From the NCBI GenBank assembly GCA_013139395.1, contig WTAX01000176.1, forward strand, positions 1-12,699: a DNA stretch of 12,699 nt, given 5' to 3'. This document shows, in pieces, positions 2,389 to 12,699 of the stretch (the stretch's first letter is position 1; each line of letters opens with the position of its first letter). This DNA is from Gammaproteobacteria bacterium (GTDB lineage Bacteria; Pseudomonadota; Gammaproteobacteria; GRL18). The translations under genes and the position numbers were made by a program. Below the pieces are notes generated by a model. The model saw nothing but the letters and a program-made list of their open reading frames with translations. It did not search any database and was not told the DNA's origin.

Positions 2389-2540
2389 CTAAATAACTGT
2401 TCCTAAATGGTATACACGGAGCATCAGAACCGGTCATTTATTATTGGGCGATTTTATGTCAATATGAGCGCAATAATGCATGATCGGTTCTGATGCGAAT
2501 AGTCAATGAATAATGCTCACGTGTTGGAACACTTATTTAG
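2389..2540. repeat. Imperfect inverted-repeat element (MITE-like) between comEC and exbB
   Basis: Ends are CTAAATAACTGTTCC (2389-2403) and the inverted copy GGAACACTTATTTAG (2526-2540), 14 of 15 paired. Inside, 2421-2446 and 2471-2496 form a second inverted repeat with 23 of 26 positions complementary, around a 24-nt loop. It has no credible ORF. I see no clear target-site duplication. Symmetrical ends plus a long internal stem suggest a small non-autonomous element. In RNA it would fold into a strong hairpin that could attenuate comEC-to-exbB read-through. Confidence 0.6.
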
Positions 2541-4713: not shown

Positions 4714-4884
4714 GTGGATAAAAAATTACTCGATATTCTGGCCTGTCCAGTCTGTAAGGGCGAATTAAATTACGATAAAGAAAATAATGAGCTTATCTGT
4801 GACAAAGATAAACTGGCTTTTCCAATTCGTGATGACATTCCTGTTATGCTCGAATCAGAAGCCCGTACTTTGGAAACAAAATAA
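4714..4884 (+). CDS. ycaR: YcaR / Trm112-like zinc-ribbon small protein
   Basis: 56-aa protein beginning [16 protein letters not shown] and containing [20 protein letters not shown]. It closely matches E. coli YcaR (UPF0434/Trm112 family), which sits between lpxK and kdsB. Cys11, Cys14 and Cys29 are visible; a fourth zinc-ligand Cys is not, as in YcaR itself. The start is GTG at 4714 with GAGG (4703-4706) upstream. The ATG at 4701 is out of frame and overlaps this ribosome binding site. The gene follows lpxK after 15 bp and ends the cluster. Its molecular role is unproven; Trm112 homologues stabilise methyltransferases. The expected next gene, kdsB, is missing here. Confidence 0.92.
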
Positions 4885-4916
4885 AAACAGGCCAATAGTC
4901 AGTCCTGTTCAAACTG

Positions 4917-4946
4917 GACAGGGAAATAAAAACTGCCCTGTCTTTT
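4917..4946 (+). terminator. Rho-independent terminator after ycaR
   Basis: GACAGGG (4917-4923) pairs perfectly with CCCTGTC (4936-4942) and is followed by TTTT. A competing stem (CAGGGAAA with TTTCCCTG) and a weaker upstream stem (CCTGTTC with GGACAGG) overlap it. It lies 32 bp after the ycaR stop. The structure could also stop the convergent minus-strand gene, which ends at 5002. Confidence 0.7.
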
Positions 4947-5001
4947 CCCTGATAAATTAACAGAAGGCTGAACTCACTGGCTAGCCAATCAGTTAAAGCA
5001 A

Positions 5002-5469
5002 TTAAGGCAGTTGTGCCAACCTTAGAGGATGGGTTATATCCTGAGCATGAAGAGCTATTAAGTCATTGGAAAGTTCTTCGATTTCAGCAGTGACTGCCAA
5101 TAGAGCATCTTTTGCCTGCTCAAGCTCCTGCTTTCTATAACCGGCATAGAGTAAGCCGCCCGGAATCAGGATGGTAATAATGGCGTCACTGGCTTTCAGC
5201 TGTTTGTTTTCCACTTGTTGAATGAGTTTATGCTGGTGACGTATAAAGGCCCCTCTCAGCTTTTCTACGTCCTCTGCCAGCAACACAGGATCAATTTTCT
5301 GTATATCGTATATAAAGTCACTCTGAGTTATAGATTTTGACTTTATAATTTTCTTTTGAACCCCCTGATCGATGACAATTTCTCCAGCAAAGCTTTGTTG
5401 GCAAATGAACAAGCAGAAGAACACTATGTAGAATTGAATCAGGTGACGATACTTTCTGATGCTATACAT
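5002..5469 (-). CDS. Small secreted protein of unknown function, under a c-di-GMP riboswitch
   Basis: 155 aa. I do not recognise the family. The N-terminus is a clear signal peptide: basic MYSIRKYR, a hydrophobic core, and probable cleavage after QQSFA near residue 28. That leaves a periplasmic or exported protein of about 127 residues. The mature part is mostly helical in appearance. A hydrophobic, Gly-containing stretch lies near 95-110 (AIITILIPGGLLYAGY), followed by a likely coiled coil to about 145 (KQELEQAKDALLAVTAEIEE). No cysteines remain after cleavage. The ATG has a strong AAAGGAGA ribosome binding site seven bases upstream. It is a single-gene unit, convergent with ycaR, with a leader of about 300 nt carrying a GEMM-I aptamer. 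Expression is therefore probably set by cyclic di-GMP, which suggests a surface, biofilm or motility role. The role is inference only. Confidence 0.8.
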   Translation of the reverse strand: MYSIRKYRHLIQFYIVFFCLFICQQSFAGEIVIDQGVQKKIIKSKSITQSDFIYDIQKIDPVLLAEDVEKLRGAFIRHQHKLIQQVENKQLKASDAIITILIPGGLLYAGYRKQELEQAKDALLAVTAEIEELSNDLIALHAQDITHPLRLAQLP

Positions 5470-5660
5470 TTAATTCTCCTTTCGGGTTAATTCTGAATAC
5501 TATTTAATTGATCTCATAACAATCCATGTAAATTATTATTGTTATTGTCAATGACAAAAAATTTAACAATACAGATATAAAAAATATATACGAAGGAGGT
5601 TAAATAAATAAAGATTGGAGGAGTTTACGAGAAAATAACAAAGTACACTGATATGTTTCT

Positions 5661-5740
5661 GGTAACCCCGCTATCATAGGTAATCCCCTTAGATCGGAAG
5701 CTTTGCGTATCTGACCTTTCGGATCAGGTAGCCTTTTTCA
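5661..5740 (-). promoter_or_regulatory. Cyclic-di-GMP-I (GEMM-I) riboswitch aptamer
   Basis: Read on the minus strand, the segment matches the GEMM-I consensus in order. It starts with AAGGC. A hairpin CTGATCC-GAAA-GGTCAG with a GNRA tetraloop follows, then ACGCAAAGC, then CCGATCTAA. A second stem ends in TAGCGGGGTTACC, the same 3' block as the Vibrio cholerae Vc2 aptamer (GTAGCGGGGTTACC). The first helix closes as AGGC with GCUU. The GAAA loop and the GC-rich 3' block supply the tetraloop-receptor contact. About 190 nt separate it from the 5469 start codon. That stretch is AT-rich with only weak stems and no obvious intrinsic terminator, so the readout may be translational or use a distal fold. 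Ligand identity follows from the conserved core; on/off polarity cannot be told. Confidence 0.88.
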
Positions 5741-5784
5741 GTTGTTATATAAAGTGTATGGGCAAAAATTATAAATAACAAGAT

Positions 5785-5790
5785 ATTATA
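5785..5790 (-). promoter_or_regulatory. Candidate -10 box for the riboswitch transcript
   Basis: A perfect TATAAT on the minus strand would start RNA about 40 nt before the aptamer. No good -35 lies 16-18 bp upstream. An alternative pair is TTGTTA (5776-5781) and TACACT (5753-5758), with 17-bp spacing. The choice between them is open. Confidence 0.4.
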
Positions 5791-5845
5791 GTTAGAATTG
5801 TGACACCCTTATCGTTATTTCTAAGATGGCAGGCATACCGATACA

Positions 5846-5861
5846 CTGTAAATACGTACAG
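5846..5861. promoter_or_regulatory. LexA (SOS) box
   Basis: CTGTAAATACGTACAG fits the gammaproteobacterial LexA operator CTGT-N8-ACAG, with both half-sites perfect and an AT-rich centre. It covers the -35 position of a rightward promoter whose -10 is TATACT at 5868-5873, the usual place for SOS repression. The first substantial gene to the right is the ABC transporter ATPase at 6234. The leftward riboswitch promoter is about 55 bp away, too far for simple occlusion. Confidence 0.6.
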
Positions 5862-5867
5862 TTGCTC

Positions 5868-5873
5868 TATACT
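5868..5873 (+). promoter_or_regulatory. Candidate rightward -10 box under the LexA site
   Basis: TATACT has one mismatch from TATAAT. At 17-bp spacing the -35 would be ACTGTA, which lies inside the LexA box and is weak by itself, as in many SOS promoters. The transcript would start near 5880 and pass through the tandem repeat and the MITE into the transporter operon. Confidence 0.4.
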
Positions 5874-5886
5874 ATGATTTATAAAG

Positions 5887-5914
5887 GATGACTTATTGAA
5901 GATGACTTATTGAG
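5887..5914 (+). repeat. 14-bp tandem duplication
   Basis: GATGACTTATTGAA is followed at once by GATGACTTATTGAG (13 of 14 identical). Each copy contains the mini-ORF ATG ACT TAT TGA. It lies just downstream of the presumed SOS transcription start. Confidence 0.8.
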
Positions 5915-5969
5915 GATTTGACGGGTCTTAGAAGAGGTGGTAAATTTTTATCTTAATTATTTTCATAAT

Positions 5970-6168
5970 CCTAAATTAATCAATTGAATCGTAGCGAGAG
6001 CGATCACCAAAAGTAGGCTCCATAAGGAGAGGTGCTGGAGATTCAAGGCTTTGCAGGTTATTTTGGATTTATTCGTAGTCATCCTACGGGTGAATTCAAA
6101 ATGCTCTGAAAAGCCTTGAAGATTCAGTGCATTGGACGCTCGCAGTAGGTTCAACTGATTTATTTAGG
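5970..6168. mobile_element. 199-bp MITE-like palindromic element with 5-bp target duplication
   Basis: The terminal inverted repeats begin CCTAAATTAATCAATTGAA on the left. The inverted right end reads CCTAAATAAATCAGTTGAA, 17 of the first 20 positions matching, and similarity continues to GCGAG. ATAAT directly flanks both ends (5965-5969 and 6169-6173) and is a likely target-site duplication. Inside, 6042-6071 pairs with 6091-6120 (24 of 30), and the loop holds a perfect CGTAG/CTACG stem, so the element folds into one long hairpin. It carries no transposase. A 63-codon minus-strand frame across it is best seen as a by-product of the repeat. It sits in the leader of the ABC operon, 65 bp before the start codon, and must have moved with a transposase supplied in trans. 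Confidence 0.72.
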
Positions 6169-6233
6169 ATAATAGCAAGTATCCAGCTGCTGGAACTTTA
6201 TTTGTCTGATTGTTCAGGCACAAGGTGACTCCA

Positions 6234-6938
6234 TTGCAAATTAAGCTCAAGAATATAAGCAAAAATTATCTGCAGGGTGGACAACAACATATTATTCTTG
6301 ATGATATAAATGTCACCTTTGATAAGGGTGAAGTCATTGCTCTGGTGGGTCCAAGTGGTTCGGGAAAAACGACCTTACTGAACCTGATCTCAGGTATTGA
6401 TGAGCCAGATGCTGGTGAGGTGTTAGTGTATGACAATAATGATTTTGTTAGCCTTAGTGCAATGAATGATGAGCAAAAAACGTTATTTCGTCGCCACTCA
6501 ATAGGCTTTATTTTTCAGTTTTTTAATTTAATTCCCACTCTGACTGTTTTAGAAAATATTCAATTTCCTCTGGAATTGTGCGCACAACTGGACAGTTCAG
6601 CAGCAGATAAAATAAGCGATTTACTGCAGAGACTTTCGATTAAAAATAAACAGCATGAATATCCTGAATGTTTATCCGGCGGTGAACAGCAACGGGTGGC
6701 AATTGCCCGGGCCATTATTCATCAACCTCAAATTTTACTGGCTGATGAGCCAACGGGCAATCTTGATGATGAAACCGGGCAGCAGGTCATTAATATACTG
6801 CTGGAGTTGGCCAAAGAGAACCAAATGACGATGCTGATAGTCACTCATAGTCTGGATATTGCCAGCCGGGCCGATCGAATTTTATCTTTAAAAAGCGGGC
6901 ATCTTGTGGAAAAGGTGTCTCTGAAAAATGCAACTTAG
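6234..6938 (+). CDS. ABC transporter ATP-binding protein (AttE/LolD/MacB type)
   Basis: Cytoplasmic ATPase that powers the permease encoded next. About 234 aa from the chosen start. Walker A is GPSGSGKTT (near residue 39), with a Q-loop in FIFQFFNLIPTLTVLENI. The signature is LSGGEQQRVAIARA (near 147), Walker B is ILLADEPTGNLD (near 168), and the switch histidine is in VTHS. All are intact. The Q-loop and signature belong to the LolD/MacB/YbbA branch, which pairs with FtsX-type permeases. The frame is open back to a TTG at 6210, and GTG 6225 has an AGG upstream. TTG 6234 is preferred because AAGGTGA lies directly before it with good spacing. The stop overlaps the permease start by 11 bp, so the two are coupled. 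Expression may come from the LexA-controlled promoter upstream. Confidence 0.9.
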   Translation: MQIKLKNISKNYLQGGQQHIILDDINVTFDKGEVIALVGPSGSGKTTLLNLISGIDEPDAGEVLVYDNNDFVSLSAMNDEQKTLFRRHSIGFIFQFFNLIPTLTVLENIQFPLELCAQLDSSAADKISDLLQRLSIKNKQHEYPECLSGGEQQRVAIARAIIHQPQILLADEPTGNLDDETGQQVINILLELAKENQMTMLIVTHSLDIASRADRILSLKSGHLVEKVSLKNAT

Positions 6939-10762: not shown

Positions 10763-10927
10763 TTGTAACTATTCAGTGAGTATTTCTAATTACTAGTGTT
10801 AAGCCTATGGTCACTCATTTTTCTAACTTTGACTTTCTGTTACGAGATGTCGCTACGCTCAGACAATCAAAGTCAGAAAAATAAGCAACCACAGGCTTTT
10901 TGTAAATAACATGCTGAATAGTTACAA
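10763..10927. repeat. 165-bp imperfect palindromic element after the ABC operon
   Basis: Ends are TTGTAACTATTCAG (10763-10776) and its exact inverted copy CTGAATAGTTACAA (10914-10927). Further in, AGCCT..GG and ATTTTTCT-ACTTTGA recur inverted (around 10802-10835 and 10869-10898), so the whole unit folds on itself. Outside the terminal GTAAC the flanks read AAATTATT and AAATCATT, a possible but imperfect 8-bp duplication. It has no ORF of note. It starts four bases after the attH stop and could serve as its transcription end. Its ends differ from those of the other two palindromic elements in the window. Confidence 0.65.
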
Positions 10928-12179: not shown

Positions 12180-12699
12180 TTATGCAGTTTTCTTCCGCCT
12201 GTAACCGATCCCGGCCAATCCGAGGCCCATTAGCAAGAGGGTAGTGGGTTCAGGGATCGCGGAAATCTCAATGCCATCAAAGAATCCTCGAACACCCCCT
12301 GTTACCTCGCTGACCTCAAAACTTACTGTGTAAGTACCAGAGATAGGGGCTATCCACGACCAATCAGTCCAAAGGATTGGTCCTGCACACCCAGGAGCGA
12401 TCGCTGTTACTTCGCCAGGAGTGGCGATCACTGTTCCAACGGAATCTCTAACTGTAACGCTAGCAGATTTACTATCCAGACCAAAAAAGCACTGTAATAC
12501 AGAATCTCCTTCTAAGCCTACCCATCCACTTAATATTTGCCCAGCATTTACTACACCTGTTTGTTCGAGTATAGAATTGTTGTCACTGAGCTTTAAAAAG
12601 TAGGATCCATCCTGTGGAGACCATGTAGCTCCTGTCCCAGAGAATCCGGTCAGAACCTCTGCATTTGAGGTATCACCCGACCATCCTGAGAGATCACCC
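12180..12699 (-). CDS. PEP-CTERM sorting-domain protein, N-terminus beyond the window
   Basis: The minus-strand frame is open from the right edge to TAA at 12180, giving 172 visible residues. The visible start reads GDLSGWSGDTSN, as in beta-sandwich exported proteins with GDLxGW openings. The middle is rich in Gly, Ser and Thr (ISGTYTVSFEVSEVTGGVRG). The end is a classic PEP-CTERM signal: IPEPTTLLLMGLGLAGIGYR then RKKTA. This has the Pro-Glu-Pro motif, one membrane helix and a basic tail. Such proteins are sorted by an exosortase (EpsH/XrtA type) and tied to exopolysaccharide production. Two cysteines are visible. GTG at 12431 is only an internal codon. The region is visibly richer in GC than the left 10 kb. 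Ligand and role are unknown. Confidence 0.85.
   Translation of the reverse strand, partial: GDLSGWSGDTSNAEVLTGFSGTGATWSPQDGSYFLKLSDNNSILEQTGVVNAGQILSGWVGLEGDSVLQCFFGLDSKSASVTVRDSVGTVIATPGEVTAIAPGCAGPILWTDWSWIAPISGTYTVSFEVSEVTGGVRGFFDGIEISAIPEPTTLLLMGLGLAGIGYRRKKTA

What the first reader, a model, noticed from the sequence alone, without database searches (positions are those of the whole stretch)
5002..5740. Cyclic-di-GMP-I riboswitch over an unrecognised secreted protein
The minus-strand leader has all the conserved GEMM-I blocks (GAAA tetraloop hairpin, ACGCAAAGC, CTAA, TAGCGGGGTTACC), and the only gene it can serve is a 155-aa exported protein with a coiled-coil tail. GEMM-I targets are often pili, matrix or chemotaxis genes. 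A single-gene unit with an unknown secreted product is a good candidate for a new c-di-GMP effector. A leader of about 190 nt without an obvious terminator suggests an unusual expression platform.
Basis: partly seen in the sequence, partly recalled or inferred. Interest (0 to 1): 0.8.

Follow-up and report, generated by a model that had tools for sequence, protein, structure and literature searches.

The report
c-di-GMP riboswitch before unknown membrane protein
A standard RNA sensor for the bacterial signal cyclic-di-GMP sits in front of a single gene for a small exported, probably membrane-attached protein of a family that has no name yet; the sensor is ordinary, its target is new.

Summary
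The minus strand carries a complete c-di-GMP-I (GEMM-I) aptamer, 5743-5658, Rfam RF01051, 57.3 bits against a cut-off of 35. It lies near the presumed transcript start of one gene, a 155-aa ORF (5469-5002) with a signal peptide and no Pfam or NCBIfam family. The pair is conserved: in the same genus 4 of 6 homologous copies have GEMM-I in their leader, 2 paralogues lack it, and a further leader survives in front of a start interrupted by an IS66 end. None of 19 distinct homologous loci outside the genus has it. The protein looks like an exported helical hairpin with a conserved second hydrophobic segment (PGGLLYA), probably membrane-attached rather than freely secreted. The long linker (188 nt) is the longest of five; relatives have 119-150 nt. 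It holds a candidate anti-Shine-Dalgarno element and one able to pair with the aptamer's 3' strand, so translational control, perhaps OFF with c-di-GMP, is my best guess; folding does not establish the direction. A known riboswitch class with a new, uncharacterised target family.

The parts
5658..5743 (-). c-di-GMP-I (GEMM-I) aptamer, complete
   Evidence: Rfam RF01051 57.3 bits, cut-off 35; also found by the genome search
5753..5781 (-). promoter-like pair TTGTTA-17-TACACT, ends nine bases before the aptamer; kept with small changes in related leaders
   Evidence: upstream sequences and alignment, coordinates; found by eye, 8 of 12 consensus bases, below the threshold of the automatic scan, which does not list it
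5620..5635 (-). linker element TTTTCTCGTAAACTCC able to pair with the aptamer's 3' strand (alternative hairpin, would exclude the ligand-bound fold)
   Evidence: minimum-energy folds; duplex -12.3 kcal/mol, reached by 75 of 1000 shuffles in the window copy: suggestive only
5591..5607 (-). candidate anti-Shine-Dalgarno TTATTTAACCTCCTTCG
   Evidence: duplex with the SD of -10.2 to -13.1 kcal/mol in 4 of 5 leaders, -5.2 in G004; 202 of 1000 shuffled linkers do as well in the window copy
5521..5590 (-). AT-rich stretch (84% A+T) that makes this linker 38 to 69 nt longer than the four related ones; borders approximate
   Evidence: alignment, lengths and composition
5476..5481 (-). Shine-Dalgarno AAGGAG of the 155-aa ORF
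   Evidence: sequence
5002..5469 (-). ORF of 155 aa, exported protein of an unnamed family
5386..5469 (-). signal peptide region (aa 1-28, ends SFA; AxA-like or similar in relatives; judged by eye)
   Evidence: alignment A1, hydropathy
5143..5193 (-). second hydrophobic segment aa 93-109 ASDAIITILIPGGLLYA, the best conserved part of the family
   Evidence: alignments A1 and A4, hydropathy 1.54 over 17 residues

Best explanation
A functional c-di-GMP-I riboswitch controls a single gene for a small exported, membrane-attached helical-hairpin protein. Shown: the aptamer is a full RF01051 member and is found before this gene in four genomes of the genus. Inferred from the class: it binds c-di-GMP (the G corresponding to Vc2 G20 is present; the C corresponding to C92 too, by a mapping that I recall). 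Inferred from the leader: binding stabilises the aptamer's 3' strand, which otherwise can pair with TTTTCTCGTAAACTCC in the linker; the freed pyrimidine-rich linker can then add to occlusion of the Shine-Dalgarno sequence, so that high c-di-GMP lowers translation. Probability that it is a working c-di-GMP switch for this gene about 0.85; that control is on translation about 0.5; that it is an OFF switch about 0.5. The protein most likely acts at the inner membrane or in the periplasm in a c-di-GMP-governed change of lifestyle, as is usual for GEMM-I targets; its biochemical role is not known.
For: RF01051 57.3 bits over the full model. The own genome has 3 GEMM-I elements over the cut-off and 52 GGDEF matches in 3.2 Mb, 51 over the cut-off, so the ligand is very probably made. 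The aptamer is 82-93% identical between the window and four related leaders, against 51-78% of aligned linker positions, with two doubly changed pairs. GEMM-I precedes 4 of 6 copies of the gene in the genus. Position 11 of the aptamer is G, equivalent to Vc2 G20 by the Rfam alignment (G20 as a selectivity factor: passages of PMC9262584; weight of G20 for binding: discussion of PMC4744006). The SD pairs with a linker anti-SD in 4 of 5 leaders, with a change on both sides at one pair in G014. In G004 forcing the aptamer lowers SD accessibility, 0.42 to 0.22. Ten of 30 GEMM-I downstream ORFs of the family given to Pfam are PilJ, rhodanese, phosphonate-binding/PAS, GGDEF, chemoreceptor, peptidoglycan-binding or collagen-repeat proteins.
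Against: Predicted accessibility of the SD does not change between free and aptamer-constrained folds in 3 of 4 leaders tested (window 0.13/0.13, G009 0.21/0.21, G003 0.03/0.03). In single copies neither helix beats shuffled linkers clearly (62 to 225 of 1000 for the SD duplex, 11 to 484 for the alternative pairing, whose best partner site is not the named element in G009 and G014). The anti-SD pairing is weak in G004. The whole leader with the start of the gene folds no better than shuffles (z -0.27). The gene copy is frame-broken in G003 (C316) and interrupted in G014, so it is dispensable in some lineages. In 12 of 15 other genomes of the genus the protein search found nothing, some of these genomes being incomplete. 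Two paralogues lack the riboswitch.
Confidence: 0.8

Rival explanations
1. Riboswitch acting on transcription: the C-rich, G-poor first 80 bases of the linker act as a Rho loading site that is masked by the alternative hairpin without ligand and exposed with ligand.
For: No intrinsic-terminator-like site on the minus strand of 4860-6240; C exceeds G by 9 and 11 in the first two 60-base steps of the linker.
Against: YC density of the linker is hardly above the window's (9.6 against 9.3 per 100); no tool here tests Rho; the anti-SD pairing recurs in 4 of 5 leaders.
Confidence: 0.25
2. ON switch: ligand binding removes the alternative hairpin and, during transcription, lets the leader fold so that the SD is freer.
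For: GEMM-I elements work in either direction; Vc1 of Vibrio cholerae is an ON switch without apparent terminator or anti-SD (PMC4744006, abstract and discussion; PMC6366702, first of three parts of the text).
Against: Constrained folding gives none of 4 leaders in which the SD becomes freer with the aptamer formed.
Confidence: 0.25
3. Aptamer relic: structure kept but no longer regulating this gene.
For: In G014 aptamer and leader persist although the reading frame stops after ten codons beside an IS66 end; in G003 the frame of the C316 copy is broken.
Against: In the window, G009 and G004 aptamer, SD and full reading frame are intact, and the G20-equivalent is kept.
Confidence: 0.08
4. The aptamer senses another cyclic dinucleotide (3',3'-cGAMP), as GEMM-Ib variants do (variant recalled).
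For: Two aptamers of another genus in the family (G022, G023) carry A at the selectivity position.
Against: The window aptamer and the four related leaders carry G there.
Confidence: 0.03

Closest known systems
c-di-GMP-I riboswitch (Rfam RF01051, GEMM-I; Vc1 and Vc2 of Vibrio cholerae)
   Same: Complete aptamer with GNRA tetraloop helix, CGCAAAGC, CTAA and receptor blocks and the G20-equivalent; in the leader of a single gene of surface or envelope type; no intrinsic terminator seen, as reported for Vc1.
   Different: Short third hairpin; target gene of a family that is not named; a candidate anti-SD in the linker, where the authors of the Vc1 paper saw none in Vc1.
PilJ-domain exported protein under GEMM-I in the same genome (L001)
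   Same: Same genome, same riboswitch class, small exported protein without enzyme domain.
   Different: PilJ domain recognised by Pfam; the window protein has no Pfam family.
ESCRT-III Snf7 core and EsxB-type helical hairpins
   Same: The low-confidence model is a helical hairpin of similar shape (best Foldseek E 0.78).
   Different: No match with E of 0.001 or less; exported protein with a hydrophobic hairpin turn; no homology claimed.

Membership tests
c-di-GMP-I riboswitch RF01051 | Covariance model score above the curated cut-off over the full model | tested here: met
   57.3 bits against 35, model 1-87 of 87
c-di-GMP-I riboswitch RF01051 | Helices conserved with compensatory change among relatives | tested here: met
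   95.7% of 115 cells paired in 5 sequences, 2 pairs with double change (49 of 500 shuffles reach that number), slid controls 27-48% paired
c-di-GMP-I riboswitch RF01051 | G at the ligand-selectivity position equivalent to Vc2 G20 | tested here: met
   G at aptamer position 11 in the window and in 4 of 4 related leaders; position mapping made by me from the Rfam alignment and recall of Vc2
c-di-GMP-I riboswitch RF01051 | Location in the 5' leader of a gene on the same strand | tested here: met
   188 nt between aptamer and the ATG of the 155-aa ORF, same strand; transcript start not mapped
c-di-GMP-I riboswitch RF01051 | Binds c-di-GMP | not testable with these tools
   needs in-line probing, SHAPE or ITC
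c-di-GMP-I riboswitch RF01051 | Ligand-dependent expression platform | tested here: inconclusive
   SD accessibility unchanged in 3 of 4 leaders, lowered in 1
PilJ-domain protein (PF13675) as possible identity of the 155-aa product | Match to the Pfam model | tested here: not met
   Only a chance-level match to another family for the window protein; no PilJ match among 9 family members at E up to 1

The most novel reading that the evidence does not exclude
The target defines a new family of small exported helical hairpins with a membrane-inserting PGGLLYA turn, found only in some Gammaproteobacteria, that was put under c-di-GMP control once in this genus; and its leader is a two-input device in which a default SD hairpin keeps translation off in both aptamer states, so that c-di-GMP acts only together with a second factor (Rho, Hfq or a small RNA).
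Probability: 0.12. Interest if true: 0.6.

Novelty: new member of a known kind. Interest (0 to 1): 0.33.

Why it matters
It adds an unnamed envelope protein family to the likely outputs of c-di-GMP in Gammaproteobacteria, one of them a symbiont of the clam Lucinoma, and gives a natural comparison (paralogues with and without the riboswitch in one genome) for finding what the protein does. The riboswitch itself changes nothing in the understanding of the class.

Tried and rejected
Shine-Dalgarno mimic: the aptamer tip AAGGGGAUUA could pair with the anti-SD and free the SD. It fails as a general model: in G003 the duplex is -3.6 kcal/mol, and pairing of the tip with the linker is reached by 163, 157, 43, 456 and 170 of 500 shuffled linkers. 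Kept only as a note.

TAACCC just before the SD pairing with GGGTTA of the aptamer: present in the window only, not in the four related leaders; rejected.

Known family for the protein: Pfam, NCBIfam and a PDB sequence profile search gave chance-level matches only (best PDB profile match E 0.029, HAUS augmin subunit). The match of the signal peptide region to a Shiga-toxin subunit model has 13 bits against a cut-off of 715 and means nothing. The structure model has mean pLDDT 63 and pTM 0.41; Foldseek found nothing with E of 0.001 or less. No tblastn match with E up to 0.01 in 72,556 plasmid records. Phage records, E. coli genomes and viral contigs were not searched.

Conserved gene neighbourhood: by eye none beyond the close pair G021/G023; not tested by computation. 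Literature: the listings (15 of 335 shown; no paper; 12 of 17; 7 of 7; 10 of 14) show no title or abstract start about this gene or about riboswitches of this genus; the first description of GEMM was not held.

Rows left out: the frame-broken G003:C316 copy from protein alignments A1, A4 and A5; L018 and L019 (the G023 and G021 homologues) from A4 and A5. The Rfam scan used the gathering cut-off only.

Full report
What is there. The minus strand of the window holds one listed Rfam match with E up to 1: RF01051, c-di-GMP-I, 5743-5658, 57.3 bits with a cut-off of 35, over the full model. Downstream, after 188 nt, begins a 155-aa ORF (5469-5002) with AAGGAG six bases before its ATG. The recognised neighbours are on the other strand, so it is a one-gene unit. 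A promoter-like pair, TTGTTA-17-TACACT, ends nine bases before the aptamer and is kept, with small changes, in the related leaders; it was found by eye and is not among the sites of the automatic scan.

The genome. The window is contig C124 of a 3.2 Mb draft genome (79% complete, 550 contigs). It has three GEMM-I elements over the cut-off: this one, one before a PilJ-domain exported protein (L001; PF13675, 76 bits), and one whose gene is cut off by a contig end. It has 52 GGDEF matches, 51 over the Pfam cut-off. In the family, 14 of 24 genomes have GEMM-I, 30 matches in all, 27 over the cut-off; in most genomes only part of the first-look candidates was scored, so these are lower bounds. Of the 30 downstream regions, ten ORFs were given to Pfam: PilJ (2), rhodanese (2), phosphonate-binding with PAS (1), GGDEF with PAS (1), chemoreceptor CZB-HAMP (1), peptidoglycan binding (1), collagen repeats (2). 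This is a usual spread of GEMM-I targets.

The gene and its linkage. Searching 57 genomes with the protein found matches in 6, the own genome included. A profile found 12 of 369 genomes of the class at E up to 0.01, 7 of 24 of the family, one of them a weak match of E 0.007 inside a 570-aa frame, and 1 of 398 of a phylum-wide sample, namely the own genome, at E up to 0.001. The family is thus sparse. In the genus there are six copies: window, G000:C448, G009, G004, G003:C242 and G003:C316 (frame broken); 12 of 15 other genomes of the genus show none. GEMM-I lies in the leader of four of the six: window, G009, G004 and G003:C316. The two others, C448 and C242, are like each other, have no GEMM-I, and share with the riboswitch copies little beyond the bases next to the start codon. 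In G014 a fifth leader with aptamer, linker and SD is followed by ten codons resembling this gene, a stop, and the end of an IS66 transposase gene (PF13817, 41.4 bits); no match to the protein was found in G014. Outside the genus I scanned 19 distinct homologous loci, two of which are weak matches (L032, L041), and found no GEMM-I (at the gathering cut-off only; some loci are held under two names). So the riboswitch goes with this gene, in what I searched, only in this genus.

Constraint. Between the window and the four related leaders the aptamer is 82-93% identical and the aligned linker positions 51-78%. Of 115 aptamer cells 95.7% are paired; two pairs have changed on both sides, a number that 49 of 500 shuffles reach, while the covariation score is reached by 5 of 500. 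G stands at the position equivalent to Vc2 G20 in all five; PMC9262584 (two passages seen) calls it a selectivity factor. Two aptamers of another genus of the family carry A there.

Expression platform. Linkers are 188 nt in the window and 126, 133, 119 and 150 nt in G009, G004, G003 and G014; the window excess lies in an 84% A+T stretch. The length is therefore not a shared feature. Three linker blocks recur: TTTTCTCGTAAACT (diverged in G004), which can pair with the aptamer's 3' strand and its AGAAA extension and does so in the local folds of the window, G009, G003 and G014; TTATTTAA(T/C)CTCC, which pairs with AAGGAGAATTAAA at the SD in 4 of 5 leaders (-10.2 to -13.1 kcal/mol; G004 -5.2); and the SD block itself. 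In G014 one pair of the SD duplex has changed on both sides and stays paired. But single copies do not beat shuffled linkers convincingly: the best SD duplex is reached by 202, 83, 225, 62 and 220 of 1000 shuffles for window, G009, G004, G003 and G014 (the best partners in G004 and G014 being other sites), and the best pairing of the aptamer's 3' strand by 75, 36, 244, 11 and 484 (other sites in G009 and G014). Folding with the aptamer forced leaves SD accessibility unchanged in the window, G009 and G003, and lowers it in G004; G014 was not folded in that test. No intrinsic-terminator-like site is seen on the minus strand of 4860-6240. I conclude: translational control is the best guess, OFF is slightly favoured, direction not shown. 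Vc1 is likewise reported to lack an apparent terminator or anti-SD and to act as an ON switch (PMC4744006, abstract and discussion), so direction cannot be borrowed.

The protein. The seven members of alignment A1 begin with a hydrophobic stretch that ends in A-x-A-like or similar residues before a charged stretch (SFA-GE, TLA-EE, ALA-KE, CNA-DE, AHA-DI), fitting a cleaved signal peptide (judged by eye). The invariant columns over nine members centre on PGGL-YA, with one further leucine, in a second hydrophobic stretch (17-residue hydropathy 1.28 to 1.75 in five members). The model (mean pLDDT 63, pTM 0.41, residues 61-140 about 70-81) is a helical hairpin with a break at PGG. This suggests a periplasmic or bitopic protein attached to the inner membrane through this segment, rather than a freely secreted one; topology is inference. 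There is no named family, no significant solved relative and no match in plasmids.

Verdict. A real and conserved c-di-GMP-I riboswitch, ordinary as a riboswitch; the target gene is new and worth a bench test. The claim of an unusual platform is not supported.

Noticed in passing
window 5965-6173: Palindromic MITE-like element with 24-nt terminal inverted repeats (88%); 41 matches in the own genome, counted on both strands so fewer places.
   Followed up: partly
window 10801-10898: Long imperfect hairpin repeat; 64 matches in the own genome, counted on both strands, at least 16 of them at 90% identity or more.
   Followed up: partly
window 2389-2540: Third palindromic repeat family with 15-nt terminal inverted repeats around a 29-nt inner inverted repeat; 40 matches in the own genome, counted on both strands.
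   Followed up: partly
L045 1501-1597, L046 1501-1611: GEMM-I aptamers of another genus with A at the G20-equivalent position, a mark of cGAMP-type variants (recalled); L045 precedes a phosphonate-binding/PAS protein.
   Followed up: no
L054, L061, L064, L066, L067, L068 (G007): One genome of the genus has six GEMM-I-like matches, two of them under the cut-off; the genes behind L061 and L067 have collagen repeats by Pfam, those behind L054 and L068 look alike by eye.
   Followed up: partly
upstream of the promoter in L047, L055, L059 and L060; degenerate at window 5814-5799: Inverted repeat GTGA-N8-TCAC before the presumed promoter; L001 and L043 have a TGTGA-N6-TCACA or similar site like that of CRP (consensus recalled). 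A second, protein-based input is possible.
   Followed up: no
window 12183-12698: End of a PEP-CTERM exported protein gene (PF07589), cut by the contig end.
   Followed up: no
L014 1046-1196: TwoAYGGAY match below its cut-off (38.4 bits, cut-off 43) near a riboswitch-less paralogue.
   Followed up: no
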